DNA of 64,000 bases, taken from positions 6,833,299 through 6,897,298 of the forward strand of contig CM037597.1 in assembly GCA_021018995.1 (NCBI GenBank), read 5' to 3'. The stretch is from Chloranthus sessilifolius (Eukaryota > Streptophyta > Magnoliopsida > Chloranthales > Chloranthaceae). Of this stretch, positions 5,202 to 63,980 are shown in pieces (position 1 is the first letter of the stretch; every line of letters starts with the position of its first letter). The position numbers and the translations under genes were made by a program. Under the pieces are notes generated by a model. The model was not told where the DNA came from and made no database searches. It was given only the letters and a program-made list of their open reading frames with translations.

Positions 5202-5207
5202 CTTATA
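5202..5207 (-). promoter_or_regulatory. TATA-like motif in 3' LTR
   Basis: TATAAG followed by a purine-rich leader (GAGAGAGAG...) on the minus strand. The plus-strand LTRs have TATAAAAG at the homologous place, so the position is conserved. Confidence 0.35.
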
Positions 5208-5470: not shown

Positions 5471-5483
5471 TTCTCCTCCTTAG
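5471..5483 (-). other. Polypurine tract
   Basis: The minus strand reads AAGGAGGAGAA immediately upstream of the LTR start TGTAAT. This is the expected plus-strand DNA priming site for reverse transcription. Confidence 0.85.
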
Positions 5484-6059
5484 GAATTTTCGTCCTCAAA
5501 ATTGAAGACAACACATACCACAAAAGGAAATGAGAAATAACAGGGTGCAGTCGATGGTCTCACAGGCACGCAAGTCAAGGGATGAAATCCGTAGTAACGT
5601 GGATGTACTACATGTGGCACCGGAAGGGCCATAGTGGGTTGCATCCGTACATGGATGCCACCCCAAGTGTCACGTCGGAAACCGTCACACACACACACGA
5701 GCAAAACCAGAGCAAAAGCAGAGAAAACAAGCAAATACAAGGAACAGAGGCGGAGGTACTGTGGAGAGTACAAAGCCGAGAGAACAAGCCCAACTCGCAT
5801 AAAAACCCCACATATGGAGTGCAATGTAAATCAAACATATCCACAATAGAACAATTACTGCCAAGAAGGAATGGATATGAAAATAGACGCACGTAGCATG
5901 TCAAACCAAAATAATGTAATATCCAATGCACGTCAAAAAGTATATAAGAGATAACAAAAGATATAAGGACCACCAGGCCCTAAATAATCCAGGCTGTAGA
6001 AAATAATACATGCCCACAAAAACAAAAAAAAACAGATCCCCCCCCCCACCATGGAATAC
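5484..6059 (-). other. 3' untranslated spacer of the minus element
   Basis: Non-coding stretch between the extra ORF and the polypurine tract. Short frames in both directions show no recognisable protein. It has one copy of the GGACC..GGTCC segment that is duplicated in the plus-strand unit 2. Confidence 0.6.
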
Positions 6060-7378
6060 TCAGAAATCCCCCACACGAGATGTGCCCGCCTGATCCGCAT
6101 CATCAGCTTGCGCACCAACATCGTCACCCGCATCTGCGCCGGCTGTAGAAGGAATATCAGAACCAGCGCCCGACGTCGAAGGGCGATAGACCGAAGCGCG
6201 TAAGTCAGCCAGGTATGTGGTGTAATCATCAGGGAACGCGTGCTGCATCAGATAAGAAAGAGCGCCGCCATGCACATCCAACTCCTGACGCATAGAGCTG
6301 GTATGCTGTGTGAGCTCGTGGATCTGGTGGCTCATCGCGGTCATCTGTCGTGTGAACTCTGAGAGCGTAAGGATATCGCTCTGTGGGGGCTGAGCAGGGG
6401 CAACATGAGCAGGATCCTCATCGGCATCACGTGCATCCGCATCAGGAACTGCTGGTTCTTTAGGAGGTTTCACAAGGCGACTGTAGGTTTGACCCCAATT
6501 GACCAGTTTATACATCTTTCTACCAGCAGTAGACTTGAGTTCGGTAGGAGAAATGTCATATTCGGGACCCGCTCGATAATTTTCAATCATGATAGAAATT
6601 AAACGGGCATAGGGAATGCCCTTCTTCGGCGTTTTTATTTGTTTCCCGGTTTCTCAGCCTTAATAAGCCCCTTTAAAAGTACCTCGTGAGCACTAAACCA
6701 TCGTTCTTTAAAAGCGACAAATAAAATCTGGAGGGACAGGCGCTTTATGTCCAAGAGGGTAAAGGGTAGTCTTAAAATTTTATCCAAAATCCACATAGAT
6801 TACGGCATATGTGTGCGAACAATGGACCTACAGTGGCGTCCTTGCGTCATTTGAGCCATTACCTCGTGAGAAGGGACTGGTTTGGGAAAGGGAGGACCTA
6901 AACCCATGGTTTTAGAGTATTTCAACGGGCATCGTAGTGCCACAGCCATGTCATCTAGGTCAAAAGTATAATCTCGCCCATCAATTTCAGTGTAAATTTT
7001 CTTCCCGTCCTCGCGGCGCATATGTTGGTAAAACAGGCGCACTAAACGAGGATAAAAATGGGCACTAAAATCAGTGCACAGGAAGGTCAGCTGGGCTTTT
7101 TCAAGGTATTCACTCGCCCACTGTGTGGTAGTTTGTTGGTCAAACAACTCCGGGTGAAAAACATACTCATAGGCGAAGCCCTTGATGCTCCAAAATTCAT
7201 TGGGCTGCTCAGGCATTGGAGGGGGCACAGATGGTGTGGGCTGAGAAGGTGGTGGAACCGACTGAGGTGGTTCCCGGGGCTGTGGGGCTGTCCGTGTAGG
7301 GCGGCTAGAGGAACCAGCTTTCGAAGCCGGCCTCTTGGAGGTGGGGTTGCGAATAGGGGTGGCCTTCTTAGGTCCCAT
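6060..7378 (-). pseudogene. Additional sense ORF downstream of pol (frameshifted)
   Basis: Begins MGPKKATPIRNPTSKRPAS, a basic Ser/Pro-rich N-terminus. About 150 residues of predicted globular sequence follow, with blocks such as HFYPRLVRLFYQHM and IDGRDYTFDL.DMAVALR, then an acidic Ala/Asp-rich tail ending GDF. At least one frameshift lies between about 6590 and 6830. From memory the core resembles the 'putative plant transposon protein' domain found in plant repeat-encoded proteins; this is recognition by eye, not a search result. No signal peptide or membrane segment is seen, which argues against an env-like protein. The plus-strand family has the same ORF at the same place. Confidence 0.7.
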
Positions 7379-8426
7379 TGAAAAAAAAAAAAAAAAAAAA
7401 AACAAGCAAAAATCCACAGATTACAAGTAACAGAGAGAGATAAAGGAATGGAGCAAGGGTTACCTTGTGAAAAGCCCCAAATCCGATTTCCTAAGAGTGA
7501 AATCCAAATCCTTGGTGTAATCCGTGTGAAAACCCCTTCGATTTTGGCAGAAAGAATGATGAAAACCCTAAAAACCACCAAATCGCCCAAAACCCTAAGC
7601 CTAAACCCACAGAAAAGCAACCAAAAATAACAGAGCCCGAAATAGGAGCCCCACTTAAATCGAGAAAATCGACCCTCGATTTCAAATTCGTGGGTCGAAT
7701 TTGAATTCGACCGTCGACAAAAAAAATCGACACTCGATTTTTGTGAAAATTTCTCAGGCCTAAATTTGGCCTTAAAATGCCTATAACAATGCAAAAAAAA
7801 TCGACCCTCGATTTGTAAACCCTCGATTTTCAAGTGTCTGAGGTCTTCACAATTTCGAAATTTTGAGATGTTTAAGGCATTACCTTGGGTCCAAATGGAC
7901 CATTTGTGTGTCCATTTCATGCAAAACAACTCGATTCTTGATAATAGCTATATTGGTCAATTTGGGCTAAAAGTTTCTGAAAATAAACTTAAAAATTTGT
8001 TGTGATGGAAAATAGCAAGTCCGGGTCTGATTGGACTCGAAATTTTTTTTTTTTTTTTTTCTGGTTTGTTCAGCAAGGAAAAACTGTGAAAGAGTTACAA
8101 AAAGAGCATATTTTGGACCATGACCATGACATGTCAAGGCCAAATGGTTCAGTAAATGTCCAAATAGGTAAGTGACCATAGACCGAATTTAGGTCACTAG
8201 ACCTATAGTGAGTAGCATACCAGAATTGGGTCTAAGGCCCAAAATTTTTTTTTTCCGATTTCTATAATGTAGGGATTTCGATATAGACCCACTCAGTAAA
8301 AATACCTTGATCCTCCAAAATTTCTCATAGAAATATTTATATGTATATATAAAACCAATAGGTACACATAAATGTCAAAATATTACACAGTCTACACAGA
8401 GTGAGAAATCAAAAAAAAAAGAAATT
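7379..8426 (-). other. Spacer and leader between pol and the additional ORF
   Basis: About 1 kb, non-coding. On the minus strand, just upstream of the extra ORF, it has AGGGTTT-type motifs typical of plant 5' leaders, a CACAAG|GTAACC donor-like site (about 7460) and a 20+ base T tract directly before the ATG. Further upstream is a cluster of TCGAnnnTCGA short repeats (about 7660-7830). The arrangement looks like a separate promoter and leader rather than plain spacer. Confidence 0.5.
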
Positions 8427-11400
8427 TTAAGCAAAAAGGCTCGGAAATTGTTCCCGGAGCTCAGCTTCACGCTCCCAAGTGGCTTCCTCCGGTGTATGAT
8501 TCCTCCATTGTACAAGAACCAAAGGAATCGTTTTAGTGCGTAGGATCTGCTCCTTGCGATCCAAAATCTGAATCGGGTCCTCAATCACCGTCAAACCATC
8601 CTGAAGCTCAATGGGTTGGAAATCAAGCACGTGAGTCGGGTCACGTATGTATCGACGAAGCATCGACACATGGAAGACGTTGTGCATGCTAGACAATTGT
8701 GGCGGTAGCGCCACTCGATAAGCAACCTCTCCGACTCGGCCTAATATCTCAAAAGGCCCAACGTACCGAGGACTCAACTTCCCTCGCTTCAAAACCTCAT
8801 AACGCTTTCGAGGTAAATCCAACAAAGACATTCTCGCCAACCTCAAAATCCACGTGTCGCCTCTTGAGATCGGCGTAGCTCTTCTGACGACTCTGAGCTA
8901 CTCGTAGTCGCTCGCGTATCAACCGAACCGTCTCGGTCGTGCGCTCAACTATCTCAGGTCCAATAATGAGCTTCTCACCCACTTCTTCCCAGTTCAACGG
9001 CGATCGACACCGTCGTCCATATAAAGCCTCGAACGGAGCCATACCGATGCTAGCCTGAAAGCTATTGTTGTAGGCGAACTCGATCAGAGGCAAGTGTTGG
9101 TCCCATGACCCGTGAAAATCCAACATGCAAGCTCTCAGCATGTCCTCAATGATCTGATTCACTCGCCACCGTCCGTCTGTCCCGTGGGGTGAAATGTGAA
9201 CTAAAGTCAAGACGAGAACCCATTCCTTCCTGAAATCTCTGCCAAAAGTGTGAAGTAAACAACGGGTCCGTTCGACACAATACTAGCGATCCCATGCTCC
9301 TAACAATCTCCTTGAGGTATAACTCTGCAAGTCTACTAGCTGTATACGAGGTATTGTATGGTAGGAAATGAGCAGATTTGGTTAGCCGATCGACAATGAC
9401 CCAAATGGCATTGTTCTTCCTCAGTGTTTTCGGCAAACCTAGAATGAAGTCCATCGAAATGGCTTCCCATTTCCATTCAGGCACAGGTAAAGGCTGTAAT
9501 AACCCTGTTGGATTCTGATGGTCAACCTTAACCTGCTGACAAACTAGGCACCGCGATACGTACTCAGCGACGTCGCGTTTCAAACCTCGCCACCAAAACT
9601 TTTCATCAAGTCCTGATACATCTTGGTGCTACCAGGATGTATGGCATACATGGATTTGTGAGCCTCTTCTAGAATAGTGTCCCAAGCTCGAGCTTGTTAC
9701 ACATACACGTCCACGAAACAACAAGGTTCCATCGCTCAATGGAGAAATCCTTCTTCCTGCCACACTCGACATCTCGCCGAATCACCACCAGCACATCATC
9801 GGTCATCTGAAGCTTTCTAATATTCTCGAAGAGCGTAGGGCGTAGTACAAGAGTAGCCATCAATGCTCCCGAGCCGTTTACATCGAACCGTGAGCTGCCT
9901 AAAGCCATATCCTCCAAAAGCTTCCATCGCTGAATCCGGCTCACAAGATGTGATAACTGTGCTGTAGACCTTCTACTGAGAGCATTAGCAACGACATTTG
10001 CCTTTCCTGGATGGTACTGAATCGAGCAATCATAGTCTTTCAAAAACTCCATCCATCGTCGCTGCCTCATGTTCAAGTCCTTCTGAGTGAACAGGTACTT
10101 GAGACTCTTGTGATCGGTGAATATATCAAATATTTCACCGTAGAGGTAATGTCTCCAGATCTTGAGGCGAATATATATGCTCGCTAACTTGAGATCATCG
10201 TCGGATAATTTCTCTCATGGTCCTTCAACGCCTAGAACCATAAGCAATAACCCGCCGTGTTGATTAAGCATGACCTAATCCATATAAGAAGCATCACACC
10301 ACGAAGCCTCCGCAAGGTATAGCAAGTACGGTGCCGTAGTCAGCGACGCTTCAACTCCACGAAAACTCTGCTCACCGCTCATCCCAATCGAACTTTGCAT
10401 TCTTTCTCGTAAGTCGTAAGCGGACCGAGATAATTCGAGAAACCTTCGACAAATCGCCGATAGTACCCTGCCAAACCAAGGAAACTCCGGACTTACAATC
10501 GCGAGGGCTGTTCCCGATTCACCAGTAATCGATCTTTGTAGGATCCACCGAAATGCCTGACTCAGAGACAACGTGGCCTAAGAAACTGACCTGATCGAGC
10601 CAAAACTCACACTTGCTGAGTTTGGCATATAATTGATGGTCCCTGAGTGTTTGAAGAGCCATCCTTAGATGTTGCACATGCTCCTCTCTGGTTTTCGAAT
10701 AGATGAGGATGTCATCTCTGAAAACAACCACAGATTTATCAAGGTGTGGTTTGAACACCTGTTCATCAGATCCATGAAAGATGCAGGCGCATTTGTCAAT
10801 CCAAATGGCATCACTAGAAACTCATAGTGGCCATAACGCGTCCGAAACGCAGTTTTGGATACATCTTCCACCTTGATCTTGAGTTGGTGATAGCCTGACC
10901 TCAGATCAATCTTTGAAAAGAATTTGGCACCTTGCAATTGATCAAACAAGTCATCTATCCGCGGAAGAGGATAACGATTCTTAATCGTCATCTTGTTGAG
11001 TTGCCTATAATCGATACACAGACGCATCGATCCATCCTTCTTTTCACAAATGTAACCGTGCACCCCAAGGAGAAACACTCCGAATAAAGCCTTTGTCTAA
11101 CAACTCTTGAAGCTGTTCCTTGAGCTCCTTCAACTCAGCAGGCGCCATTCGATAAGGAGCCTTGGACAATGGTTCTGTACCCGGAGCTAAGTCGATCGCA
11201 AACTCAATCTCTCGATCCGGTGGCAATCCAGGCAAGTCATCAGGAAAAACATCGGGAAACTCACTAACTACTGTAAGAAGTGCAATGTCCCGATCTTTCT
11301 CCTTACTATCTTGCAAGTAAGCAAGATATCCACAACATCCGTTCCTCATCATGCGCTCAGCTCGGATGGCGGAAATAATAGGTGCAACGTTCGATTTGAC

Positions 11401-11774
11401 TCCGCAAAATCGAAATGATTTCATCTTCGGTGGTCGGAAGGTTACGATCTTCCGTAAACAGTCCACATTCGCATGGTATGCAGACAACCAATCCATCCCG
11501 AGAATCACGTCGAACCCTGCCATTTTCAGCGTAATCATGTCGGTCATTGTCTCGTGGTCATCAACTATCACGATCAGCAGACTTGCACTGCAGATCTCAT
11601 CTTGAAGCGAGCTTCAGAGGAACCTTCACATCCAAGACAAACGCAAGGGTTTGGGTACAATGCTCATCTTCTCGGAGAAAAGAGGAGTAATGAAGAGTGA
11701 CTAGACCCGTGGTCTATTAATACTGTATGCTTCAATTTTACTTGAGTCGCTTCCACAACTCATCATAAGTGTAC
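8427..11774 (-). pseudogene. pol: pol: protease, RT, RNase H, integrase, chromodomain (minus element)
   Basis: Order on the minus strand: the protease region (about 11730-11300) includes [16 protein letters not shown] (about 11080-10560) includes [20 protein letters not shown] and [19 protein letters not shown]. RNase H (about 10300-9970) ends with [16 protein letters not shown]. Integrase follows with the zinc motif [14 protein letters not shown] (about 9540) and the catalytic core; then [15 protein letters not shown] and a chromodomain-like end [19 protein letters not shown]. The RT active site reads FRDD, not FVDD, at 10711-10722. Several one- or two-base indels break the frame (for example near 9210, 9640, 10230, 10560). 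Unlike the plus-strand family, no intron interrupts integrase: codons run straight through DFEVGENVFV. Confidence 0.88.
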
Positions 11775-11911
11775 CTTAATTAAAAAGTTTGTCATTAATT
11801 ATGTATGCTTATATGCAATGATGTTATTGTATTTTCAATGTATTGACAAGGAATATATAACTCAATCAATAAAATTTAATACTAAAAGTAAAATCTGAAC
11901 TTTAAAAATAC
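11775..11911 (-). other. Intron between gag and protease (minus element)
   Basis: A 137 bp AT-rich segment. On the minus strand it begins AAG|GTATTT and ends TTAATTAAG|GT. It carries stops in the gag frame. Removing it joins the end of gag to the protease region in frame. The plus-strand family has a 128 bp segment at exactly the same codon with the same boundary pattern. Confidence 0.7.
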
Positions 11912-13174
11912 CTTGGACCACGTCATTCGACGTTTGGGCATTTTTGCACGATCGCATAGCATAGACTCGACCTTGTAGGTCGCGTCGACTTTTGCGTAGA
12001 GCGTGTAGTAAATCCTTTCTCAACAATAGGACAATCCTTGATCATATGACCAACTTTGTCCCACACGAAGCATGCTCCGGTGTTAGTCGCAATCCTCTGT
12101 TTTATGTGTTTTCCCACATCTTGCACACAGTGGAGTAGAAACAGGAGTAACAGCTGATCCCTTCGTTGAACCTTGAGCCACAGAAGCTCCACTCGCAGTA
12201 GTGCTCCCAGCTCTGAATGGTTGTCCTGGTGACGAACTCTGCGGTCTCTGATATGAAGACGTCACTGGTCCTGAAGCAACAGCTGGTCTAGAGTATGATG
12301 GCTGACTAGGGTAGGGAGGAGGTCTAGAGAACCTCGGCTTTTTGTTCACCTGCCCTGAAGCACTCTGCTGTCCCTGGCCAAACCGATTTTTATTTCCCTG
12401 CTCTCGCCTCAAGTATTGTTTTTGAATGTCCTCCTCTGCTATGAGGGCCTTTGTCATGACGCCAGCATACGTCTCCATCTCCCACATAGACACCCTCTCC
12501 TGAATGTTCGGCCTCAATCCTCTCTGAAATTTCTGAGCTCTCATCAGCTCAGTGGCCACGTGCAAGGGTGCAAATCTGGAGAGTCTATCAAACTCGCCGA
12601 CTCGCGCAGACATCTCATCTCATCTGTTTACTCGATGATGGACTTGATGACGCACGATCTTAGGAAAATATTGATCGTTGAACGTCTCCACAAACTCTGC
12701 CCAAGTCCATGGAGTATTAGGGTAGTCCTGCTCTCTCATCCTAGAAACAGACTTCCACCACGGACTGGCCTCTCCCAAAAGTTTGAAGGATGCCCACATT
12801 TCTCAACAACATAGACATCGCAAAGACTTCAAATATCTTCTCTATCTCATCAAGCCACGCCGGCTTCCATAGGATCCGTCTGTCTCGAGAATGTAGGAGG
12901 TCTCATCCTCCCGAACTCGGCGTAATCCTCTGGTGATGTCGCCGCCAAGATCTCTCGCTGCTCTATCAATGGCTGCAATCTGGCCATGTTAGTAGCCAAG
13001 GCGCCAATACCTGCTCACATTCCTCTATCTCGCAGCTCCCAAAGGCTCTGCATTAGGGCCAGAAGCAACTCGCCCTCTACCATAAGAGGTGCCTACGCCC
13101 TCACCTATCCCATCAATGTGAGCTGTACGAGGTCCCTCTATACCTCGGCCTCTGCCTCTAAACCGTGGAGGCAT
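11912..13174 (-). pseudogene. gag: gag (minus element)
   Basis: Starts ATG-CCT-CCA-CGG (MPPR) as in the plus-strand family. The Gag body includes RVGEFDRLSRFAPLHVATEL and RGLRPNIQERVSMWEMETYA. A Ser/Pro/Gln-rich linker follows. Two zinc knuckles come next: CARCGKTHKTEDC and a second that reads CFVWDKVGHMIKDC, where the second cysteine of CX2C is lost (W-D in place of R-C-G). The frame is broken in the first 500 bp and near 12110. Gag packages the RNA and forms the virus-like particle. Confidence 0.85.
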
Positions 13175-13270
13175 GCTGATCTGTCATTGTTAACAACAAC
13201 AATAATTGATCAGTAATAATTGTTAGAATGAATCTAACCCCTAGTCCTAAGACTTTGAACCTAGAGCCTT

Positions 13271-13282
13271 GCTCTGATACCA
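13271..13282 (-). other. Primer binding site, tRNA-iMet
   Basis: The minus strand reads TGGTATCAGAGC two bases inside the 5' LTR. This is complementary to the 3' end of plant initiator tRNA-Met and is the standard priming site for this group. Confidence 0.9.
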
Positions 13283-13619
13283 ACTGTGACGACCCGACTT
13301 TTCCAATCCTTACGGTATAGGAAAGGCCGGTTCATCAACTTATTGATTTCTCAATAAGCCGTATTCAAACAGAAGCCGGCACATAACAATGATCTAAAAC
13401 AGAGGCAAAGTAGAGATAAACCATAAATCAAAAGCTTGATATAACAAATCTATCACTATGAGGAACCAAAAGGAACCACCGGTGATGGCCAATCCAACAC
13501 CTAAACTAATGGTTCACGATGATGGTTCCTCAAGTGATATCAAAAGAACAAAATAAGGCCTAAGGCCCAATATTCAAAACAATATTCAAATAAAATACCA
13601 AAAATATAGGATCTAGAGA

Positions 13620-13703
13620 TCAAGGGAAGAACTCCTCAGCAGGTAAATCTAATTCCTCAGAATATAGTCGAATCCTCCAAATCCTCCGATCCCAAATCGC
13701 CTC
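13620..13703 (-). CDS. Conserved acidic short ORF inside the LTR (minus element, 5' LTR)
   Basis: The same frame as 3585-3671, ending LPAEEFFP and TGA. Here it is disturbed by small losses at CTCCTCAGG and GTCAGAATCC. Those sites are intact in the other LTR of the same element, so consensus error is likely. Confidence 0.4.
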   Translation of the reverse strand, partial: EAIWDRRIWRIRLYSEELDLPAEEFFP

Positions 13704-15217
13704 AAAGACCTGTGACGTATAGTCGAGGTGAGCTAACAACAGAGCCCAGTCGAGGAAGCAGATCTATTTGCATTTCATTATAAGTAAAGGTTTTTCAAAA
13801 GATGAATTCGGATCAAATATGGTTTTCAAATGATGCTTTGCAAACGAAATCTCGATTCTAATCTGAGTTAAAAGCGAATACATAAATCTGATGTGTTAGA
13901 ACTTTTCCGTGAGCATGCTTCTTATATTAAATTTATAACTTAATTTTATCTCTCAAATTTCCTATAGCATGAGAGCAAGGTGCATTACCGATGGACCAAC
14001 CATCGCCGTTCATGAACCCTTTTACGAATGCAACAAGCCCTACGCTATGAGGGAAACTTGCGCCTAAAGTTATACCGTCAACACGGTTGGTAGAATCTAG
14101 GGCATCGTTTACGACGCGTACCTCAAATCAAATGCAAATGCTAACGTATTTCAATACTTATATTCATAACATAATACTGATTTTCGGAAGTTCTGATTCA
14201 AAAGTTCTGATTCAAGATTTAACTGAGGTTCTGAGGTTCAATTTGCAAAGTTCTTAGTTATAACAAAGTTTCCAAATTTTCAGATTTGTGTCATATAATC
14301 AGAGTTTTATTCATGCTGTGTGCAACTGAATTTCCAAATTTATACTTCTTAATTTAACAGTAAAACAGTCTTTACTTACAATTTAATGCAAATAAAATAC
14401 AAGGTTCCCCTACCTTAACAAAGAGCTTCCAATCAAGCACAAAAAAAGTCCTCACCAAGGACTCCCAACAAATAAAACCTACATATATTAACACTCGTGT
14501 TAATATAAAACCAAAAATCAAACTAAGAGATTATGGATCAAAATCCAACAAAAGATTTGAATGGAACAGATGAATTTAATTCAAATTCAATTGGGTCGAA
14601 TTTGAAATTCGATGGTCGATTCTAAATTCGACCCTCGAATTTCAAATTTACATTTCAAACAAAAAAATTGAAAATCGACACTCGATTTTCAATTCGATGG
14701 TCGATTCTGGAATTCGACCCTCGATTTGAAAATCGACAGTCGATTTTCTCAGACATGAAATTTTGTAAAAATTAGGATCTTAGATCCTTTTTAAAATTTT
14801 TTTTTTTCGCCACAGATTGTTTAGCCAATAATTACCTTTATAAACTAAACAAAATACAACATAACATGTTTAACTAACAGGTTTTAAAAACCTACCTTTT
14901 GACGTATATTTAGTTGTTTCCGTTGCACCAATCACGCATCGGAAAACATCTCAAAGCTCGATTCTCAAAATTTCACTTGACCATCCAATAAGGTGACCAT
15001 GACCTCATCAATCAACCAAATCAGAGGTTCTCACTCTCCACATCACTCTTCTCTTTCTATAGATCAAAATGATCCGAATACAAATCTAAGGTTAATTAAT
15101 GGGTGAGATGTGAAGAGGAGTTCTAAATCTTACAAGATCTAAGATCAATGAAGCAAGGCCTTTAAGGCTTAAATTTCCAACGAGAGAGAGAGATTAATCT
15201 TCTCTTGCACTCTCTCT

Positions 15218-15223
15218 CTTATA
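15218..15223 (-). promoter_or_regulatory. TATA-like motif in 5' LTR
   Basis: TATAAG with a purine-rich leader on the minus strand, the likely transcription start region of the element. Confidence 0.35.
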
Positions 15224-15492
15224 ACCGAAAACTAAACAAATTAATATCTAGATATTATATTTTTGTAACTTATCTCCTAAAATAGAAAAAGTGTCCGACG
15301 CTAACCACAAACACCTACGTTATGGTGTAAGTCATCGCTTACATGACTTGCACACATCGTTTGACAAAAACCTCTTACCACTAGTCTTATCATAGCCTTA
15401 TCTTACTAAAAGTCCAAAAATATTATACCGTATTTTCCGGGCACGCTTCCCGAGGTAAACGAAAATAGGTCAAAAATATCAGGGATATTACA

Positions 15493-35711: not shown

Positions 35712-36717
35712 GTGACGACCCGACTTTTCCAATCCCTAAGGTATAGGAAAGGTCGGTTCATCAACTTATTGATTTCTCAATAAGCCGTAACAAACAGAAG
35801 CCGGCAACATAAACAGAGGTCTAAAGAACAGAGGCATCATATCATAATCCAAAAAGAACCAAAAGACTACAGATAGCAAAAGAATATATCACTGTGAGGA
35901 ACCAAAAGGAACCACCGGTGATGGCCAATCCAATCACCTAAAATAGAGGTTCACGATAATGGTTCCTCTAGTGATATCAAAAGGACAAAATAATAGCCTA
36001 GGGCTCAATATTCCAAAATAATATCCAGACAAAATACCAAAAATACAGGAATCCAAAGATCACGGGAAGAACTCCTCCGCTGGTATATCCAAATCCTCCT
36101 CTGGAATATAATCGGAGTCCTCCGGATCCTCTGACCCAATGTCGGTCTCAGCACCTGTGACGTATAGTCGAGGGTGAGCTAACAGCTAAGCTCAATAGAA
36201 GAAGCCAGATCTATTTGCAGTTCATTATAAGTACTGGTTTTCAAAAGACGGAATCGGATCAAATATGATTTTTCAAAGATGCTTTCCAATTTAAATCTCC
36301 AGTTCTAATCCTGAGTCAAACTGATAGTAAGTTCAAGGTGTTCAAAATGTTCTGATTTAGCATGCTTCTTGTCTTAAATTTATAACTTAATTTTATCTCT
36401 CAAATTTCCTATAGCATGAGAGCGGACTAAGTGACCGATAGGAAGACCCTACTGACCATCGTCGTTCATGAACCTATTTCGAAAATGCAACAAGCCCCTG
36501 CGCTATGAGGGAAACTTGTGCCAAAGTTTTACCGTCAACACGGTTGGTGGAATCTAGGGCATCGTACTTATGAACCCTAAATCAAATGCAAATGCTAATA
36601 CATATCAAAGCTTATTAATTATAACATATACTGAATTGTCAAAGTTCTGATTCGAAATTCTGATTCGAAAATTCACTAAGATTCTGATTCAAAAAGGTTT
36701 AGCTGAGGTTCTGATTC
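35712..36717 (-). repeat. Half LTR of the main family, minus strand, cut by the plus element
   Basis: On plus it begins TGTGACGACCCGAC, the end of the main family's LTR. It matches about 1 kb of the plus-lineage LTR in reverse complement, then stops at CTGATTC where another LTR starts (36718). It contains the conserved acidic reading frame at 36060-36146. Confidence 0.9.
36060..36146 (-). CDS. Conserved acidic short ORF in the half LTR
   Basis: Same frame and nearly the same codons as in the plus-strand LTRs (DSDYIPEEDLDIPAEEFFP then TGA). This LTR keeps the longer upstream frame through a CGACTATACGTCACAGGTGC segment. Confidence 0.45.
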   Translation of the reverse strand, partial: TDIGSEDPEDSDYIPEEDLDIPAEEFFP

Positions 36718-36989: not shown

Positions 36990-38496
36990 AGATTGCAAGT
37001 GAAGCTTGCATCTCTCTCTCTCTCTCGTTGGAAAGGCTTGAGGAAAATAACCATGCAAGGTTATTTAAATTCCAGATCTAAGAAGCAAGAGAGATCCTCC
37101 TCCCATCTTGACCATTGATCGTATTGGTGATGGTCTTTAGATCAGTTTAAGCTATAAAAAGGGAAAGATAGAGGAGAAGACATCCCTGTGCCTATAAATC
37201 TGTGCCAAAGAAGAAGGGTTGCAATGAACAAAGCTGATGCCATTGAACCCTTGGTTTAGAAACTGATTTCCGAAGCACAAATCGGTACGAAGGGATCTAC
37301 CGTTAAAGATAAAAAGAGGTATGTATTGAAACCTCTGTATGAAAATCTGTGAATCTTTTTCTTTGAATTAAAAATATATATGTGCGATAAAGAAGAGGGT
37401 TGGTCATGAAAAGATCGGAAAAGATCCGGACATGTCAAAGTGCATACGAAACGGAAATTAATCGATTTCAAAATCATTTGTCAATTCTTGATTAAGGCTC
37501 GATCGGGATGTGGAAATTCGATGGTCGATTTTGGATTCGACCATCGATTTCAAATTCGACCATCGAATTGGAAAATCGATGGTCGAATTCTGCCCTGACT
37601 TTTTGGTTCGAAAATTTGTTGGACTTTCTTCTTGCAAGCTTTCGGGTTAAATCTTGTAGCTTTATATTAACACTAAGGGTGGTAAGATATGTAGGTTTTG
37701 ACGTCGGAAGTCCTTGGAGAGGACCGTTTTTGCATGCTTTTGAAACCGCTTGGTTAAGGTAGGGGAACCCAAATTCTCTTTGCATAAATTATAAGCACAA
37801 GCCATGATAGACAATTTATTTGAAACGCATAAATTTGATAGAAGTCTGTGCACATAGTATAAACAAAGCTTGAATATAAGACAACATCAGAAATTTGTAA
37901 ACATTGTTAGGGACAAGAATCTGTGTGAATCAGAACCTCAGCTAAACCTTTTTGAATCAGAATCTCAGTGAATTTTCGAATCAGAATTTCGAATCAGAAC
38001 TTTGACAATTCAGTATATGTTATAATTAATAAGCTTTGATATGTATTAGCATTTGCATTTGATTTAGGGGTCATAAGTACGATGCCCTAGATTCCACCAA
38101 CCGTGTTGACGGTAAAACTTTGGCACAAGTTTCCCTCATAGCGCAGGGGCTTGTTGCATTTTCGAAATGGGTTCATGAACGACGATGGTCAGTAGGGTCT
38201 TCCCATCGGTCACTTAGTCCGCTCTCATGCTATAGGAAATTTGAGAGATAAAATTAAGTTATAAATTTAAGACAAGAAGCATGCTAAATCAGATCATTCT
38301 GAACACTTGCAATTTACTATCAGTTTTGACTCAGGATTAGAACTGGAGATTTAAATTTGAAAGCATCTTTTGAAAAATCATATTTGATCCGATTAGTCTT
38401 TTGAAAACCGATTACTTATAATAAAGCGCAAATAGATCCGCTTCTTCTATTGAGCTTGGTTGTTAGCTCACCTCGACTATACGTCCAGTGTCTTTG

Positions 38497-40228: not shown

Positions 40229-40356
40229 GTATCATTAAAGTTGAGATGTCATTTATGCATTGATTCAATTATTATTGTTTAAATTTGAATACAAGCCAAT
40301 TATGTTGAACCACATAGAAATCATTGCATATAATTAACAAAACTTTTTAACTAAAG
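40229..40356 (+). other. Intron between gag and protease, unit 1
   Basis: 128 bp from CAAG|GTATCA to CTAAAG|GTACCC; identical boundaries to units 2 and 3. Confidence 0.68.
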
Positions 40357-43300
40357 GTACCCTTATGATGAGTAGTCGAGATGACATGGATAAAATTGAA
40401 GCATGAGTACTTATAGACCCTGGGTCTACACACTCGTTTATTACTCCTTCCTTCTCAGAGAAGTTGGGTATTACTCACGAACCTCTTGCTTTATTACGGA
40501 TGTCAAGATTCCTACGGGAGTTCGGTGTGTCGATATTGATGTCGATCCATCGTGATGATTGATGAGCACGAGACATCGACCGACATGATTACGTTGAGCA
40601 TGGAAGGGTTCGACGTTATTCTCGGAATGGATTGGTTGGCAGCTTATCACGCGAGTGTAGACTGTCTGCGGAAGATAGTGACCTTCATGGCCAAAGCGAA
40701 AATCCTTCCGATTTTGTGGAGTCAAATCCAAGGTTGCCGTTGGTTTGACCATTAAAAGCCGGCGTATGATGAGGAATGGTTGCAGTGGGTATCTAGCCTA
40801 TTTGCAAGATTCTACCGAAAAGAAGAACGACTTGCCTCTTATCAAGGTGGTCTGTGATTATCCTGATGTCTTTCCAGTGGACTTGCCTGGATTACCACCT
40901 GACCGAGGGATTGAATTCGCGATTGAGCTAGCGCCAGATGTAACCGTTATCTAAAGCTCCATAGCGGATGGCGCTGCTAAGTTGAAGGAACTCAAGGACT
41001 TCAGAGCTCTTAGACAAAGGCTTTATACGACAAAGTGTTTCTCCTTGGGTGCACGGTTCTATTTGTGAAAAAGAAGGATGGATCGATGCGTCTGTGTATC
41101 GATTATAGGCAGCTCAACAAAATGACAATTAAGAATCGTTATCCTCTTCCAAGGATAGATGATTTGTTTGACCAATTGCAAGGTGCAAGATTCTTTTCGA
41201 AGATTGATCTGAGGTCGGGCTATCACCAGCTCAAGATCAAGGCAGAAGATATATCCAAGACTGCGTTTCAGACGCGTTATGGCCACTATGAGTTTCTAGT
41301 GATGCCATTTGGATTGACGAATGCGCCTGCATCTTTCATGGACCTGATGAACAGGGTGTTCAAACCACATCTTGATAAATTTGTGGTAGTTTTCAGAGAT
41401 GATATCCTCATCTATTCGAAAACCGAGAGGAGCATGTCGACATCGAAGATAGCTCTTCAAACACTCAGGGACCATCAGCTGTATGCCAAACTCAGTAAGT
41501 GTGAGTTTTGGCTTGAGCAGGTCAGTTTCTTGGGCCACGAGTCTCAAGCGTATCTCAAAGGATCCTACAAAGATAGATTCTGTGGTGACATGGGAACAAC
41601 CTACGGCCATACTAGAGGTCCAAGTTTCCTTGGTTTGGCAGGTACTATCGGCGATTTGTCGAGGGTTTCTCAAGATATCGTCCACTTACACTTTCACAAG
41701 AAAGAATGCTAAGTTCGATGACGAGCAAAGGTGAGCAGAGCTTTCAGGAGTTAAAGCCGCTGACTACAAGACCAAGCTTGCTATACCTTCCGGCAGTGGA
41801 GGTTTTGCAGTATATAGTGATGCTTCTTATGGCGGATTAGGCTGTGTGCTTAATCAACACGAGCGGGTCATTGCATATGGTTCTAGGCAGTTGAAGGACC
41901 ATGAAAGAAACTATCCGGACGATGACTTAGAGCTAGCAAGAGTTATATTCGCTTTGAAGATCCGGGCGACATTACCTCTACGGTGAAGTTTTGATATATT
42001 CACCGATCACAAGAGTCTCAAGTACTCTTCACTCAAAAGGACTTGAATATGCTACGACGATGGATGGAGTTCTTGAAGGACTACGATTGCTCGATTCAAG
42101 ACCATCCGGGAAAGGCAAATGTCGTCTTGATGCTCTTAGTAGAGGTCTTCACGCTTATCACATCTTGTTAGCCGGATTCAGAGATGGAAGCTATTGGAAG
42201 ATATGGCTTTGGGCAGCTCAAGGTTTGATGTAAAAGGCTCGGGAGCATTGATGGCTACACTTGTGTTACGTCCTACGCTCTTCGAGAATATTAGAAAGCT
42301 TCAGATGACCGATGATGAGCTGATGGCAATCAGACGAGATGTCGAGAATGGCTGTAAGAAGGATTTCTATACCATGAGCAGATGGAACCTTATTATTTCA
42401 CGACCGTGTATGCGTACCGTCGAGTACCGAGCTTCGGGACACCATTCTGGAAGAGGCTCACAAATCCATGTATGCCATACATCCTGGTAGCACCAAGATG
42501 TATCAGGACTTGATGAAGAGTTTCTGGTGGCGAGGTTTGAAACGCGACGTCGCTGAGTACGTATCGCGGTGTTTGGTTTGTCAGTGTTAAGGTTGATCAT
42601 CGTAATCCGGAGGTCTATGCGGCCTTTACCTATACTCGAGTGGAAATGGGAAGCCATTTCGATGGATTTTATACTCAGGTTGCCTAAGACACTGAGGAAG
42701 AACAATGTCATCTGGGTCATTGTAGATCGACTAACCAAGTCTGCTCATTTCTTGCCATATAATACCACCTATACAGCCAGTAGACTTGCAGAGTTATACC
42801 TGAAGGAGATTGTTAGACTGCATGGGATACCGGCCAGTATTGTGTCTGATCGAGACCCGTTGTTTACTTCACATTTTTGGCAAAGATTTCAGGAAGGCAT
42901 GGGTTCTCGTCTTGATTTTAGTTCGGCGTTTCACCCACAGACGGATGGCCAGACCGAGCGCGTGAACCAGATCATTGAGGACATGTTGAGAGCATGTATG
43001 CTGGATTTTCACGGGTCATGGGACCAACACTTGCCTCTGATTGAGTTCGCCTACAACAATAGCTTTCAGGCTAGTATTGGTATGGCTCCATTCGAGGCGT
43101 TATATGGACGACGGTGCCGATCACCGTTGAACTGGGAAGAAGTGGGTGAGAAGCTCATTATTGGACCTGAGATAGTTGAGCGCACTACCGAGACAGTTCG
43201 GTTGATACGCGAGCGACTACGAGTAGCTCAGAGTCGTCAGAAGAGCTACGCCGATCTCAAACGGAGACACGTGGACTTTCAGGTAGATTTATCATGTTAA

Positions 43301-43775
43301 TGAGTATATTTTCTTGGTATAAATTCCATTTGAAAATAGCAATAATACTCGATTTTTCAGGTCGGCGAGAATGTTTTCGTTCGGATTTCGCCTACCAAGG
43401 GCGTTATGCGGTTCGGGAAACGAAAGCGAGTCCTCGATGACGTTGGGCCTTTTGAGATACTAGGCCGAGTCGGAGAGGTTGCATATCGGTGGCGTTATCA
43501 CGCAATTATCTAGCATGCACGATGTCTTTCATGTGTCGATGCTGCGACGATACATCCGTGACCCGACTCATGTACTTGATTACCAACCCATCGAACTTCA
43601 GGATGGTTTGAAGGTGATCGAGGACCCGATTCGTATTTTGGATCGCAAGGAGCAGATCCTACGCACTAAAAGCATTCCTTTGGTTCTCGTGCAATGGCGG
43701 AATCATACACCAGAGGAAGCCACTTGGGAGCGTGAAGCTGAGATCCGAGACCAATTTCCAAGCCTCTTTGTTTAA
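40357..43775 (+). pseudogene. pol: pol, unit 1 (frameshifted), with integrase intron
   Basis: Protease, RT, RNase H, integrase and chromodomain follow in the normal order, with many small indels. The long open parts are RT (41035-41712) and integrase (42569-43300). An in-frame TGA at 40404 precedes the protease DPGSTHSF motif, as in the other units. The RT active site is FRDD (41392-41403), as in the minus element, while units 2 and 3 have FVDD. At 42248 it has TTG (Leu), where units 2 and 3 have TAG. An intron (43283-43360) interrupts integrase before the GPF/chromodomain part. Confidence 0.85.
43283..43360 (+). other. Intron inside integrase, unit 1
   Basis: 78 bp from TTTCAG|GTAGAT to TTTTTCAG|GTCGGC; carries stops; phase 0. 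Confidence 0.68.
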
Positions 43776-50151: not shown

Positions 50152-50279
50152 GTATCATTAAAGTTGAGATGTCATTTATGCATTGATTCAATTATTATTG
50201 TTTAAATTTGAATTCAAGCCAATTATGTTGAACCACATAGAAATCATTGCATATAATTAACAAAACTTTTTAACTAAAG
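50152..50279 (+). other. Intron between gag and protease, unit 2
   Basis: 128 bp; CAAG|GTATCA to CTAAAG|GTACCC; AT-rich; stops in frame. Confidence 0.7.
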
Positions 50280-53200: not shown

Positions 53201-53756
53201 CAGAGTCGTCAGAAGAGCTACGCCGATCTCAAACGGAGACACGTGGACTTTCAGGTAGAATTATCATGTCAACGAGTATATTATTTTCTTGGTACAATTC
53301 CATGTGAAATTTGCAATAATACTCGATTCTTCTCAGGTCGGCGAGAATGTTTTCGTTCGGATTTCGCCTACCAAGGGCGTTATGCGGTTCGGGAAACGAG
53401 GGAAACTGAGTCCTCGGTACGTTGGGCCTTTTGAGATACTAGGCCGAGTCGGAGAGGTTGCATATCGAGTGGCGTTACCGCCGCAATTATCTAGCATGCA
53501 CGATGTCTTTCATGTGTCGATGCTGCGACGATACATCCGTGACCCGACTCATGTACTTGATTACCAACCCATCGAACTTCAGGATGGTTTGAAGGTGATC
53601 GAGGACCCGATTCGTATTTTGGATCGCAAGGAGCAGATCCTACGCACTAAAAGCATTCCTTTGGTTCTCGTGCAATGGCGGAATCATACACCAGAGGAAG
53701 CCACTTGGGAGCGTGAAGCTGAGATCCGAGACCAATTTCCAAGCCTCTTTGTTTAA
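50280..53756 (+). pseudogene. pol: pol, unit 2, with integrase intron and in-frame stops
   Basis: Protease and RT are open from 50387 to 51268. RT continues at 51282 with active site FVDD. The RNase H start is broken near 51675-51730 and its tail near 52000-52080. A TAG at 52217-52219 separates the RNase H end from the integrase frame (52220 on). The integrase zinc motif ([14 protein letters not shown]) and DDE residues (in [28 protein letters not shown] and [18 protein letters not shown]) are intact. The intron at 53255-53336 precedes [15 protein letters not shown] and the chromodomain-like end [17 protein letters not shown]. Confidence 0.88.
53255..53336 (+). other. Intron inside integrase, unit 2
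   Basis: 82 bp from TTTCAG|GTAGAA to TTCTCAG|GTCGGC, flanked by the direct repeat TCAGGT. Phase 0; removal restores the integrase frame that is continuous in the minus element. Confidence 0.72.
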
Positions 53757-59096: not shown

Positions 59097-60378
59097 ATGC
59101 CTCCACGGTTTAGAGGCAGAGGCCGAGGTATAGAGGGACCTCGTACAGCTCGCATTGATGGGATAGATGAGGGCGTAGGCACCTCTTATGGCAGAGGGCG
59201 AGTTGCTTCGCCTAATCTGAGATCCCTTGGGAGCTCCTAGACAGGATAGAGGGAATGTAGACGAGGTGTTGGCAGCCTTGGCTACTAATATGGCACAGAT
59301 CGACCATTGATAGGCAGACAGAGATCTTTGGCGACTAGACATCAGCCAGGAGGATTCGCAGAGTTTAGGAGGATGAGACCTCCTACATTCTCAGGGCAGA
59401 CGGATCCTATGGAAGCCGAGGCATGGCTGGATGAGATGGAGAAAATATTTGAAGTGTTGCAGTGTACTGAGGTTGAGAAAGTACGATGGGCATCTTTCAA
59501 ACTTCTGGGCGAGGCTAGCCCATGGTGGAAATCTGTTTCTAGGATGAGAGAACAGGACTACCCCAATACTCCATGGACTTGGGCAGAGTTCGTGGAGACA
59601 TTCAACGATCAGTATTTTCCGAAGATCGTACGTAATCAGTGGGAGGTCCAGTTCATCGAGTTGAAACAGAATGAGATGTCGGTGCGTGAGTATGGCGCAG
59701 AATTTGATAGACTTTCCCGATTTGCACCCCTACATGTGGCCACTGAGCTGATGAGAGCTCAGAAATTTCAGAGAGGGTTGAGGCCGAACATTCAGGAGAG
59801 GGTGTCGATGTGGGAAATGGAGACGTATGCTGGCGTTATGTCCAAGGCCCTCATTGCAGAGGAAGACATTCAAAAGCAGCACTTGAGGCGAGAGCAGGGT
59901 AATAGAAATAGGTTTGGCCAGGGACAGCAGAGTGCTTCAGAGCAGGTGAACAAAAAGCCGAGGTTCTCTAAACCTCCTCCCTACCCTAGTCAGCCAGCAT
60001 ATTCTAGACCGGCTGTTGCATCAGGACCAGTGACGTCCTCCTATCAGAGACCGCCGAGTTCATCACCGTGACCTTTTTCGAGAGCCGGGAGCACTCGCAA
60101 GTGGAGCTTCAGGCTCGTGGTTCGACGAAAGGATCAGCTGCTACTCCTGTTTCTACCACAGTGTGTGCAAGATGTGGGAAACCACATAAGACAGAGGATT
60201 GCAGACGGAACACTGGGGGATGCTTCAGGTGTGGACAGGTTGGTCACATGATCAAGGATTGTCCTGTTGTTGAGAGAGGACGAACTCGCAGTCTACTCTA
60301 AGTCGAGCCCTACAGTTCAAGGTCGGGCTTATGCGGTGACTGCACAGGATGCCCAAACGTCGAATGACGTCATTCAAG
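59097..60378 (+). pseudogene. gag: gag, unit 3 (nearly intact)
   Basis: Starts MPPRFRGRGRGIEG at 59097. It breaks near 59210-59240 and 59298-59340, then is open from 59307 to 60071 through the whole Gag body and the Pro/Gln-rich linker. After a frameshift near 60066, both zinc knuckles follow (CARCGKPHKTEDC and CFRCGQVGHMIKDC), and another break near 60290 precedes the conserved end that joins the intron at 60378. Gag is the structural protein that binds RNA and forms particles. Confidence 0.88.
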
Positions 60379-60506
60379 GTATCATTAAAGTTGAGATGTC
60401 ATTTATGCATTGATTCAATTATTATTGTTTAAATTTGAATTCAAGCCAATTATGTTGAACCACATAGAAATCATTGCATATAATTAACAAAACTTTTTAA
60501 CTAAAG
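60379..60506 (+). other. Intron between gag and protease, unit 3
   Basis: 128 bp, about 75% A+T, from CAAG|GTATCA to CTAAAG|GTACCC. It carries stops in the gag frame; removal fuses gag to the protease exon in frame. AAGGTA is repeated at both junctions. Confidence 0.72.
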
Positions 60507-63500
60507 GTACCCTTATGATGAGTAGTCGAGATGACATGGATAAAATTGAAGCATGAGTACTTATAGACCCTGGGTCTACACACTCGTTTATTACTCCTTC
60601 CTTCTCAGAGAAGTTGGGTATTACTCCTGAACCTCTTGCTTTTATTCTGGATGTCAAGATTCCTACGGGGAGTTCAGTGTGTCGTCAAGATGTCACTACC
60701 ATCGTGATGATTGATGAGCACGAGACATCGACCGACATGATTACGTTGAGCATGGAAGGGTTCGACGTTATTCTCGGAATGGATTGGTTGGCAGCTTATC
60801 ACGCGAGTGTAGACTGTCTGCGGAAGATAGTGACCTTCCGACCGCCAAAGCGAAAATCCTTCCGATTTTGTGGAGTCAAATCCAAGGTTGCGCCGTTGGT
60901 TTCAGCCATTAAAGCCGAGCGTATGATGAGGAATGGTTGCAGTGGGTATCTAGCCTATTTGCAAGATTCTACCGAAAAGAAGAACGACTTGCCTCTTATC
61001 AAGGTGGTCTGCGATTATCCTGATGTCTTTCCAGAGGACTTGCCTGGATTACCACCTGACCGAGAGATTGAATTCGCGATTGAGCTAGCGCCGGGTACAG
61101 AACCGTTATCTAAAGCTCCATATCGGATGGCGCCTGCTAAGTTGAAGGAACTCAAGGAACAGCTTCAGGAGCTCTTAGACAAAGGCTTTATACGACCGAG
61201 TGTTTCTCCTTGGGGTGCACCGGTTCTATTTGTGAAAAAGAAGGATGGATCGATGCGTCTGTGTATCGATTATAGGCAGCTCAACAAAATGACAATTAAG
61301 AATCGTTATCCTCTTCCAAGGATAGATGATTTGTTTGACCAATTGCAAGGTGCAAGATTCTTTTCGAAGATTGATCTGAGGTCGGGCTATCACCAGCTCA
61401 AGATCAAGGCAGAAGATATATCCAAGACTGCGTTTCAGACGCGTTATGGCCACTATGAGTTTCTAGTGATGCCATTTGGATTGACGAATGCGCCTGCATC
61501 TTTCATGGACCTGATGAACAGGGTGTTCAAACCACATCTTGATAAATTTGTGGTAGTTTTCGTAGATGATATCCTCATCTATTCGAAAACCAGAGAGGAG
61601 CATGTGCAGCATCTGAAGATAGCTCTTCAAACACTCAGGGACCATCAGTTGTATGCCAAACTCAGTAAGTGTGAGTTTTGGCTTGAGCAGGTCAGTTTCT
61701 TGGGACACGTAGTCTCTGAAGCAGGTATCTCAGTGGATCCTACAAAGATAGATTCTGTGGTGACGTGGGAACAACCTACGACATTTACAGAGGTCCGAAG
61801 CTTCCTTGGTTTGGCAGGGTACTATCGGCGATTTGTCGAGGGTTTCTCGAAGATATCGGGTCCACTTACACAGCTCACAAGAAAGAATGCTAAGTTCGAC
61901 TGGACAGATCAGTGTGAGCAGAGCTTTCAGGAGTTAAAGCGTCGCTTGACTACAGCACCAGTGCTTGCGATACCTTCTGGCAGTGGAGGTTTCGCAGTAT
62001 ATAGTGATGCTTCCTATGGCGGATTAGGCTGTGTGCTTAATCAACACGAGAGAGTCATTGCTTATGGTTCTAGGCAGTTGAAGGACCATGAAAGAAACTA
62101 TCCGACGCATGACTTAGAGCTAGCAGTAGTTATATTCGCCTTGAAGATCTGGCGACATTACCTCTACGGTGAAGTTTTTGATATATTCACCGATCACAAG
62201 AGTCTCAAGTACCTCTTCACTCAAAAGGACTTGAATATGCGGCAGCGACGATGGATGGAGTTCTTGAAGGACTACGATTGCTCGATTCAGTACCATCCGG
62301 GAAAGGCAAATGTCGTTGCAGATGCTCTTAGTAGGAGGTCTTCAGCACAGTTGTCACATCTTGTTAGCCGGATTCAGAGATGGAAGCTTTTGGAGGATAT
62401 GGCTTTGGGCAGCTCACGGTTTGATGTAAAAGGCTCGGGAGCATAGATGGCTACACTTGTGTTACGTCCTACGCTCTTCGAGAACATTCGCAAGCTTCAG
62501 ATGACCGATGATGAGCTCATGGCAATCAGACGAGATGTCGAGAATGGCAGTAAGAAAGATTTCTCTATACGAGCAGATGGAACCTTATTATTTCACGACC
62601 GTGTATGCGTACCGTCGAATACCGAGCTTCGGGATACCATTCTAGAAGAGGCTCACAAATCCATGTATGCCATACATCCTGGTAGCACCAAGATGTATCA
62701 GGACTTAAGGAAGAGCTTCTGGTGGCGAGGATTGAAGCGCGACGTCATGAGTACGACGCGTTGTTTGGTTTGTCAACAGGTTAAGGTTGATCATCAGAAT
62801 CCTGCAGGTCTATTGCAGCCTTTACCTATACCTGAGTGGAAATGGGAAGCCATTTCAATGGATTTTATACTTGGGTTGCCGAAGACACTGAGGAAGAACA
62901 ATGCCATCTGGGTCATTGTAGATCGGTTAACCAAGTCTGCTCATTTCTTGCCATATAATACCACCTATACAGCCAGTAGACTTGCAGAGTTATACTTAAA
63001 GGAGATTGTTAGACTGCATGGGATACCGGCTAGTATTGTGTCTGATCGAGACCCGTTGTTTACTTCACATTTTTGGCAAAGATTTCAGGAAGGCATGGGT
63101 TCTCGTCTTGATTTTAGTTCGGCGTTTCACCCACAGACGGATGGCCAGACCGAGCACGTGAACCAGATCATTGAGGACATGTTGAGAGCATGTATGTTGG
63201 ATTTTCACGGGTCATGGGACCAACACTTGCCTCTGATTGAGTTCGCCTACAACAATAGCTTTCAGGCTAGTATTGGTATGGCTCCATTCGAGGCGTTATA
63301 TGGACGACGGTGCCGATCACCGTTGAACTGGGAAGAAGTGGGTGAGAAGCTCATTATTGGACCTGAGATAGTTGAGCGCACTACCGAGACAGTTCGATTG
63401 ATACGCGTGCGTCTACGACTAGCTCAGAGTCGTCAGAAGAGCTACGCCGATCTCAAACGGAGACACGTGGACTTTCAGGTAGAATTATCATGTCAACGAG

Positions 63501-63980
63501 TATATTATTTTCTTGGTACAATTCCATGTGAAATTTGCAATAATACTCGATTCTTCTCAGGTCGGCGAGAATGTTTTCGTTCGGATTTCGCCTACCAAGG
63601 GCGTTATGCGGTTCGGGAAACGAGGGAAACTGAGTCCTCGGTACGTTGGGCCTTTTGAGATACTAGGCCGAGTCGGAGAGGTTGCATATCGAGTGGCGTT
63701 ACCGCCGCAATTATCTAGCATGCACGATGTCTTTCATGTGTCGATGCTGCGACGATACATCCGTGACCCGACTCATGTACTTGATTACCAACCCATCGAA
63801 CTTCAGGATGGTTTGAAGGTGATCGAGGACCCGATTCGTATTTTGGATCGCAAGGAGCAGATCCTACGCACTAAAAGCATTCCTTTGGTTCTCGTGCAAT
63901 GGCGGAATCATACACCAGAGGAAGCCACTTGGGAGCGTGAAGCTGAGATCCGAGACCAATTTCCAAGCCTCTTTGTTTAA
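60507..63980 (+). CDS. pol: pol polyprotein, unit 3: protease, RT, RNase H, integrase, chromodomain
   Basis: The most complete pol in the window. Protease begins DPGSTHSF (about 60569) just after an in-frame TGA at 60554. RT (about 61190-61700) has [16 protein letters not shown] and FVDD at 61559-61570. RNase H (about 61990-62330) has [27 protein letters not shown] and [14 protein letters not shown] at 62444-62446 interrupts the frame before integrase. The integrase zinc region has [14 protein letters not shown], and its core has the DDE residues (in [19 protein letters not shown] and [18 protein letters not shown]). An intron at 63479-63560 is followed by [15 protein letters not shown] and the chromodomain-like tail [20 protein letters not shown] chromodomain would steer integration toward marked chromatin. 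Apart from the two stops the frame is continuous. Confidence 0.9.
63479..63560 (+). other. Intron inside integrase, unit 3
   Basis: 82 bp from TTTCAG|GTAGAA to TTCTCAG|GTCGGC, phase 0, with the direct repeat TCAGGT at both ends. Absent from the minus-strand relative. Confidence 0.73.

What the first reader, a model, noticed from the sequence alone, without database searches (positions are those of the whole stretch)
63479..63560. Recent spliceosomal intron inside integrase of the plus-strand lineage
An 82 bp segment (78 bp in unit 1) begins CAG|GTAGAA and ends CTCAG|GTCGGC, is phase 0, and carries stops. It sits between the integrase core and the GPF/chromodomain part. The minus-strand relative has uninterrupted codons at the same place. 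TCAGGT is repeated at both ends, as if the segment had been inserted with a target duplication that supplied both splice sites. Introns inside retrotransposon pol are unusual because reverse transcription should remove them.
Basis: partly seen in the sequence, partly recalled or inferred. Interest (0 to 1): 0.75.

Follow-up and report, generated by a model that had tools for sequence, protein, structure and literature searches.

The report
Two-intron plant LTR retrotransposon family
A high-copy plant retrotransposon carries what looks like a spliceable intron inside its integrase gene, and an older one between gag and protease, and some genomic copies lack one or the other exactly, which suggests that partly spliced RNA is now and then copied back into the genome.

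Summary
In detail: an 82-nt GT-AG segment splits integrase in phase 0 at 63479-63560 (identical at 53255-53336, 78 nt at 43283-43360); the minus-strand relative is uninterrupted. Genome-wide, at zero mismatches, 193 copies carry it at this site, 23 lack it exactly, none has 1-58 nt left. Rooted on an uninterrupted sister family, the minus-strand lineage branches first, and intronless CAG|GTC copies are scattered through the intron-bearing clade (one clade rejected, p-AU 1.4e-7), though recombination is plain. Behind the intron the exon shows purifying selection in intron-bearing copies (pN/pS 0.12-0.21), so it is probably translated, hence spliced. An older intron (128 nt, 60379-60506) sits at the gag-protease joint in both lineages; three copies lack it precisely. 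In the copies read, each was missing only where the other was present or never gained. Best reading: spliceosomal introns gained stepwise, kept because genomic RNA is mostly unspliced, sometimes lost through reverse transcription of partly spliced RNA. Introner dispersal found no support; 'recent' is overstated; 'carries stops' is false for two of three window copies in the integrase frame. No RNA data were available; recombination and repeat-mediated deletion remain rivals.

The parts
63479..63560 (+). integrase intron, unit 3 (82 nt, phase 0, GT-AG)
53255..53336 (+). integrase intron, unit 2 (82 nt, identical to unit 3)
43283..43360 (+). integrase intron, unit 1 (78 nt)
62447..63478 (+). integrase exon 1 of unit 3 (open stretch): zinc-binding H2C2 and rve core
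   Evidence: Pfam PF17921; PF00665 matched below its curated cut-off
63561..63980 (+). integrase exon 2 of unit 3: SH3-like domain and chromodomain, to the stop codon
   Evidence: Pfam PF24626, PF00385
60379..60506 (+). gag-protease intron, unit 3 (128 nt, CAAG|GTAT...AAAG|GTAC)
50152..50279 (+). gag-protease intron, unit 2 (128 nt)
40229..40356 (+). gag-protease intron, unit 1 (128 nt)
11775..11911 (-). gag-protease intron of the minus-strand relative (137 nt)
8841..8842 (-). uninterrupted integrase joint (GAG|GTT) in the minus-strand relative
59289..60071 (+). gag capsid open stretch of unit 3
   Evidence: Pfam PF03732, PF19259
60557..62446 (+). protease, reverse transcriptase, RNase H open stretch of unit 3
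   Evidence: Pfam PF08284, PF00078, PF17917

Best explanation
The segment is a spliceosomal intron (GT-AG; U2 type by its signals only) gained once in one lineage of a Ty3/gypsy chromovirus, between the integrase core and the SH3-chromodomain part, into a CAG|GT site. The same family carries an older intron at the gag-protease joint. Removal of the integrase intron gives full integrase with chromodomain; if it stays in, integrase ends or changes frame before the chromodomain. If the gag-protease intron stays in, translation stops a few codons past Gag. Both introns persist because the RNA that is reverse-transcribed is mostly unspliced. Now and then a partly spliced RNA is the template, which makes copies lacking exactly one intron; copies without the integrase intron go on multiplying, copies without the gag-protease intron are very few. 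Shown: anatomy, distribution, exact absences, constraint on exon 2. Inferred: splicing, the unspliced genomic RNA, the route of loss.
For: Signals: GTAG...CAG, 78-84 nt in 37 of 38 copies, 70% A+T against 47-48% in the flanking 120 nt, T-rich 3' end; a CTAAT branch-like word in many copies, not in this window's units, which have ATAAT. Frame: exon frames meet in phase 0; intron length is 0, 1, 2 mod 3 in 15, 7, 16 of 38 copies. Polarity: 10 of 10 other chromovirus copies fetched (of 150 listed among 34,406 candidates, several of one family) are uninterrupted, among them the closest, L118, 85% aa identity, CAG|GTT; rooted on L118 the minus-strand lineage branches first. Exact absence at zero mismatches: 193 with the intron, 23 without (33 at up to 1 mismatch), 0 with 1-58 nt left. 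Scatter: intronless copies as one clade rejected, p-AU 1.4e-7 (26 against 35 rows), also in four windows near the joint; fewest changes 16, or 9 after collapsing branches under 90. Selection: pN/pS 0.12-0.21 in exon 2, 0.06-0.14 in exon 1 between intron-bearing subfamilies (14 of 38 copies); shared variants in exon 2 fall 8, 5, 21 at codon positions 1, 2, 3 (38 copies). 6 of 38 have both flanking frames open (at least 300 codons before, 130 after). Gag-protease intron: in both lineages, its 5' side and frame break in the sister family, precisely missing in 3 copies.
Against: No RNA evidence. Splice-site conservation could not be judged without bias, since the patterns required GT and CAG. Up- and downstream haplotypes are shuffled among copies, and in -250..+250 the nearest copy of 20 of 26 intronless rows is another intronless one, of 4 an intron-bearing one, 2 tie. 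The 16 changes lie inside the range of shuffled labels (14-26, mean 20). TTTTCAGGT at both ends would let slippage remove the segment exactly; 2 copies have five T at the joint instead of four, as slippage could give. Part of the selection signal may be shared with intronless copies by descent or recombination, and the 22 GAG copies show no codon-position bias in exon 2 (4, 7, 5). The 5' splice site GTAGNT is not the optimum (recalled).
Confidence: 0.8

Rival explanations
1. The segment is a real intron, but the intronless CAG|GTC copies descend from one or few intronless lineages and were spread over subfamilies by template switching or gene conversion, not by many losses.
For: Mosaic haplotypes are plain. 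All 33 places carry T at -7, although the intron-bearing subfamily nearest to some has C there. In -250..+250 the nearest copy is another intronless one for 20 of 26 rows, an intron-bearing one for 4, with 2 ties. Intron state fits the tree hardly better than shuffled labels.
Against: One clade is rejected even in -150..+150 (that test does not allow for recombination). L009, L024, L094 and L100 are nearest to an intron-bearing copy, and so are L031, L032, L092, L093, L098, L099 once their own partner is set aside. 32 of the 33 places have the +3 C of most intron-bearing copies (the pattern favoured C); L107 and the older intron-bearing L123 and L124 have T.
Confidence: 0.3
2. Exact losses are deletions between the direct repeats at the ends (mostly TTTTCAGGT), by reverse transcriptase slippage or DNA repair, with no splicing needed.
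For: Repeats of 6-11 nt are there; AAGGTA likewise flanks the gag-protease intron. Two places have a five-T joint (up to 2 mismatches) against 33 four-T (up to 1 mismatch).
Against: Does not explain constraint on exon 2 behind a frame-breaking segment nor exact absence of the other intron with 6 nt of repeat. Slippage should often give the five-T joint; the two five-T copies are nearest to intronless copies, so may be later T gains. Copies are not independent events.
Confidence: 0.12
3. Introner-like element: a mobile intron-making element inserted here with target duplication and was given splice sites by the target.
For: Repeat at both ends; abrupt AT-rich insert absent from the sister family.
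Against: Exact words of its 5' and 3' ends were found in no other context; exact words would miss diverged copies. No inverted ends seen by eye. Gozashti 2022 found introners in two animal groups and no land plant among 835 animal and land-plant genomes (PMC9860276, passages).
Confidence: 0.05
4. Not an intron: a non-functional insertion in a dead lineage.
For: Most copies read are broken in the flanking frames (32 of 38).
Against: Subfamilies with synonymous differences of 0.19-0.28 in exon 2 kept pN/pS at 0.12-0.21 behind the insertion.
Confidence: 0.04

Closest known systems
[quoted passage not shown]
   Same: Intron removed from only part of the transcripts, so that the whole polyprotein can be made while unspliced RNA carries it on (PMC6317226, passage; the primary papers were not seen, not held).
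   Different: There one intron before RT; here one at the gag-protease joint and a second inside integrase, in a chromovirus, each exactly missing in some copies.
EVADE, BARE1, sunflower Tyran and Varan (Ty1/copia) spliced isoforms
   Same: Splicing separates RNA pools for Gag and for genomic use (PMC12786077 and PMC7730604, passages; PMC3735527, abstract).
   Different: Those remove coding sequence to make a short Gag or other isoform; here removal of the intron restores the full Pol frame.
Cer1 of C. elegans (Ty3/gypsy)
   Same: Has splice sites and must export unspliced genomic RNA (PMC10309623, start of abstract and passages).
   Different: Splicing makes a separate protein, CERV; nothing about an intron inside integrase in what was seen.
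Introners
   Same: Intron at a CAG|GT site with a repeated end.
   Different: No dispersal found; not found in land plants by Gozashti 2022 (PMC9860276, passages).

Membership tests
Spliceosomal (U2-type) intron | GT-AG ends at joints that keep the reading frame | tested here: met
Spliceosomal (U2-type) intron | AT-rich body, T-rich 3' end, branch-like word | tested here: met
   CTAAT in many copies, ATAAT in the window's units
Spliceosomal (U2-type) intron | removed from transcripts | not testable with these tools
   no RNA data; indirect only
Ty3/gypsy chromovirus | order gag, protease, RT, RNase H, integrase, C-terminal chromodomain; LTRs and primer site | tested here: met
   rve below its Pfam cut-off
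Tekay/Del clade | place in a reference RT or integrase phylogeny | not tested
   name recalled; no reference set used
Ogre-type intron | intron between gag-prot and RT | tested here: not met
   introns lie at the gag-protease joint and inside integrase
Introner | many similar copies at different sites | tested here: not met
   (exact words only)
Introner | target site duplication or inverted ends | tested here: inconclusive
   6-11 nt direct repeat, partly expected of AG|GT sites

The most novel reading that the evidence does not exclude
The two introns form a two-step splicing switch: retention of the gag-protease intron sets Gag against Pol, and retention of the integrase intron makes a chromodomain-less integrase that could change insertion targeting. 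The family would regulate both the amount and the targeting of its integrase through host splicing, and its mixed intron-plus and intron-minus population would be a natural record of which RNA species are reverse-transcribed.
Probability: 0.2. Interest if true: 0.8.

Novelty: new variant of a known kind. Interest (0 to 1): 0.62.

Why it matters
Introns in reverse-transcribed elements should erase themselves. A family with two introns of different age, present in hundreds of copies and exactly missing in dozens, lets one measure inside one genome how often spliced RNA is packaged and copied, and how introns are gained. In the copies read, one intron was missing only where the other was kept (or had never been gained), which points to partly spliced templates or to a need for the gag-protease intron.

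Tried and rejected
Introner dispersal: exact end words with a forbidden neighbouring base; 2 of the 3 hits were read (L125, L126) and are ordinary copies, the third overlaps a listed copy. Tandem duplication of exon sequence as origin: the intron start does not resemble exon 2 by eye; not tested further. Loss of both introns: not seen in the 18 readable of 20 fetched (of 33) integrase-intronless copies nor in the 2 gag-protease-intronless copies of the intron-bearing lineage. L107 (CAG|GTT, intronless, near the base) first looked like an empty site; intron-bearing copies with GTT (L123, L124) make it equally a loss. Protein relatives (best 120 of 7,980 listed, none over 67% identical): a motif search read the joint in 55 of 120, unbroken in the protein; annotated proteins cannot exclude predicted introns, so this was not used for polarity. 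The IQ-TREE run timed out; FastTree and quick treekit trees were used instead. Presence in sister species was not mapped, no plant collection being at hand; the viral and prokaryote collections were not scanned. On re-reading, the nearest-neighbour counts and the zero-mismatch count were added, and the odds moved from 0.82 to 0.80 (best) and 0.25 to 0.30 (first rival).

Full report
What is there. Its right half holds three units of a Ty3/gypsy chromovirus lying head to tail, apparently sharing LTRs, with a primer site TGGTATCAGAG at 38935 and 48795. Unit 3 has gag, protease-RT-RNase H, the integrase core, and behind the segment an SH3-like domain and a chromodomain. The segment is as described: 82 nt at 63479-63560 and 53255-53336 (identical), 78 nt at 43283-43360. 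The minus-strand relative, an element with 2.2-kb LTRs at 3250-15492, reads straight through at 8841. That the segment carries stops holds for unit 1 in the integrase frame, not for units 2 and 3, where the frame shifts and the stop codon begins 96 nt past the segment.

A second intron. At the gag-protease joint the three units have a GT-AG segment of 128 nt and the minus-strand element one of 137 nt. In the sister family (L118; upstream stretch L129) the gag frame runs on from ...SNDVIQ through the same CAAG|GTAT and stops 13 codons later, while protease resumes in another frame; the 3' end of that segment was not mapped. In a more distant family L130 reads ...LIQG straight on into protease in one frame; L131, similar, is broken by frameshifts but has VIQGNVP unbroken. 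So this intron is probably older than the split from L118, and the integrase intron younger.

Distribution of the integrase intron. At zero mismatches the own genome has 193 copies with 55-85 nt between CAGGT and CAGGTCGGC, 23 joined CAG|GTC copies, and none with 1-31 or 32-58 nt left. With up to one mismatch the joined copies are 33, among them one TAG|GTC (L101) and one CAG|GTT (L107); with up to three mismatches joined copies of CAG and GAG type are 221. Reversed control patterns gave 0 in all of these. Counts are lower bounds: intron-bearing copies with GTT behind, such as L123 and L124, do not match. One shortened intron (68 nt, L047) is among the 38 read.

Tree. Exon columns only, 89 copies: 38 with intron, 28 CAG-type without, 22 GAG-type without, 1 TAG-type. 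L008 did not match the script's pattern and was left out, though it has the segment; L001 and L002 were dropped as the window's own units. Of the 33 places, 29 were read, the TAG one included. Rooted on L118 (88 copies, L101 left out), the GAG lineage splits off first (support 0.963, its sister side 0.903), with one CAG copy, L102, inside it, probably a recombinant; the other CAG-type copies lie at many places of the intron-bearing side. With 61 rows (35 with, 26 without; L102 and gappy rows dropped) the fewest changes are 16 (14 in each half). Shuffled labels give a mean of 20 (range 14-26 whole, 14-25 upstream, 16-25 downstream), so intron state follows the tree only loosely. With branches under 90 collapsed the counts are 9, 3 and 5. 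One clade of intronless copies is rejected: p-AU 1.4e-7 whole, 9.8e-11 upstream, 1.3e-6 downstream, and p 7e-61, 2.6e-5, 0.002 and 2e-4 in the windows -150..+150, +1..+150, -150..-1 and -250..+250. In -250..+250 the nearest copy is another intronless one for 20 of 26 rows, an intron-bearing one for 4, with 2 ties. Haplotypes before and behind the joint are partly shuffled. So several origins of the intronless state, then multiplication and exchange, fit; their number is not fixed.

Function of the exon behind it. Among intron-bearing subfamilies pN/pS is 0.12, 0.14 and 0.21 in the downstream exon and 0.06, 0.11 and 0.14 upstream (14 short-branched copies chosen by me of 38, 63 pairs). Shared variants in the downstream exon of all 38 fall 8, 5 and 21 at codon positions 1, 2 and 3 (Fisher p 0.0004). 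In the 22 GAG copies the same count is 4, 7 and 5, no bias; that is unexplained and counsels care. The intron differs by 0.13-0.27 between the same groups, close to the synonymous differences (0.14-0.28).

Exact absence of the older intron. One perfect and two two-mismatch joints in the genome, all three precise on alignment. By spacing, the first lies in an element of the GAG lineage (L119 with L108), the other two in elements that have the integrase intron (L120 with L123, L121 with L124). Conversely, of 20 integrase-intronless copies fetched (of 33), 18 could be read at the gag-protease joint and all 18 have that intron, 17 over its full length, 1 in part. No copy lacking both after having had both was seen among these.

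Model. Unspliced RNA serves as genome and for Gag; removal of the first intron opens protease-RT, removal of the second joins core and chromodomain. Exact single absences follow if partly spliced RNA is sometimes packaged. This extends the scheme reported for Ogre (PMC6317226, passage) and the separate RNA pools of BARE (PMC3735527, abstract). Six searches of the held library (20 of 44, 20 of 150, 25 of 167, 13 of 13, 15 of 147 and 15 of 36 papers listed) showed in titles and starts of abstracts no report of an intron inside integrase of a plant chromovirus; that is a listing-level check. A 2025 review says that plant LTR elements generally lack introns, with Ogre and EVADE as notable exceptions (PMC12786077, passages).

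Origin. L118 has CAG|GTT without an intron, so the gain probably hit an existing CAG|GT site. The end repeat may be a target duplication, but AAGGTA at the other intron shows that such repeats need no transposon. No source sequence was found.

Noticed in passing
28-3249 and 15493 to about 28570: About ten tandem copies of a 1.8-kb repeat, split by the minus-strand LTR element at 3250-15492 (LTRs 95.3% identical, 43 mismatches and 63 gap positions in 2246 columns).
   Followed up: partly
40229-40356, 50152-50279, 60379-60506 (+), 11775-11911 (-): Second, older intron at the gag-protease joint, with a counterpart in a sister family and three exact absences in the genome.
   Followed up: yes
L016, L028, L049, L051, L094 and others, 60-100 nt before and 50-65 nt behind the joint: Clusters of small changes and indels at the same spots in many copies; could be read errors at methylated bases or real damage.
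   Followed up: no
22 GAG-type copies, downstream exon: No codon-position bias among shared variants (4, 7, 5), unlike the other groups.
   Followed up: no
36318-36717 against 37927-38326: Inverted 400-nt repeat, 98% complementary: apparently a piece of the LTR in opposite orientation beside unit 1.
   Followed up: no
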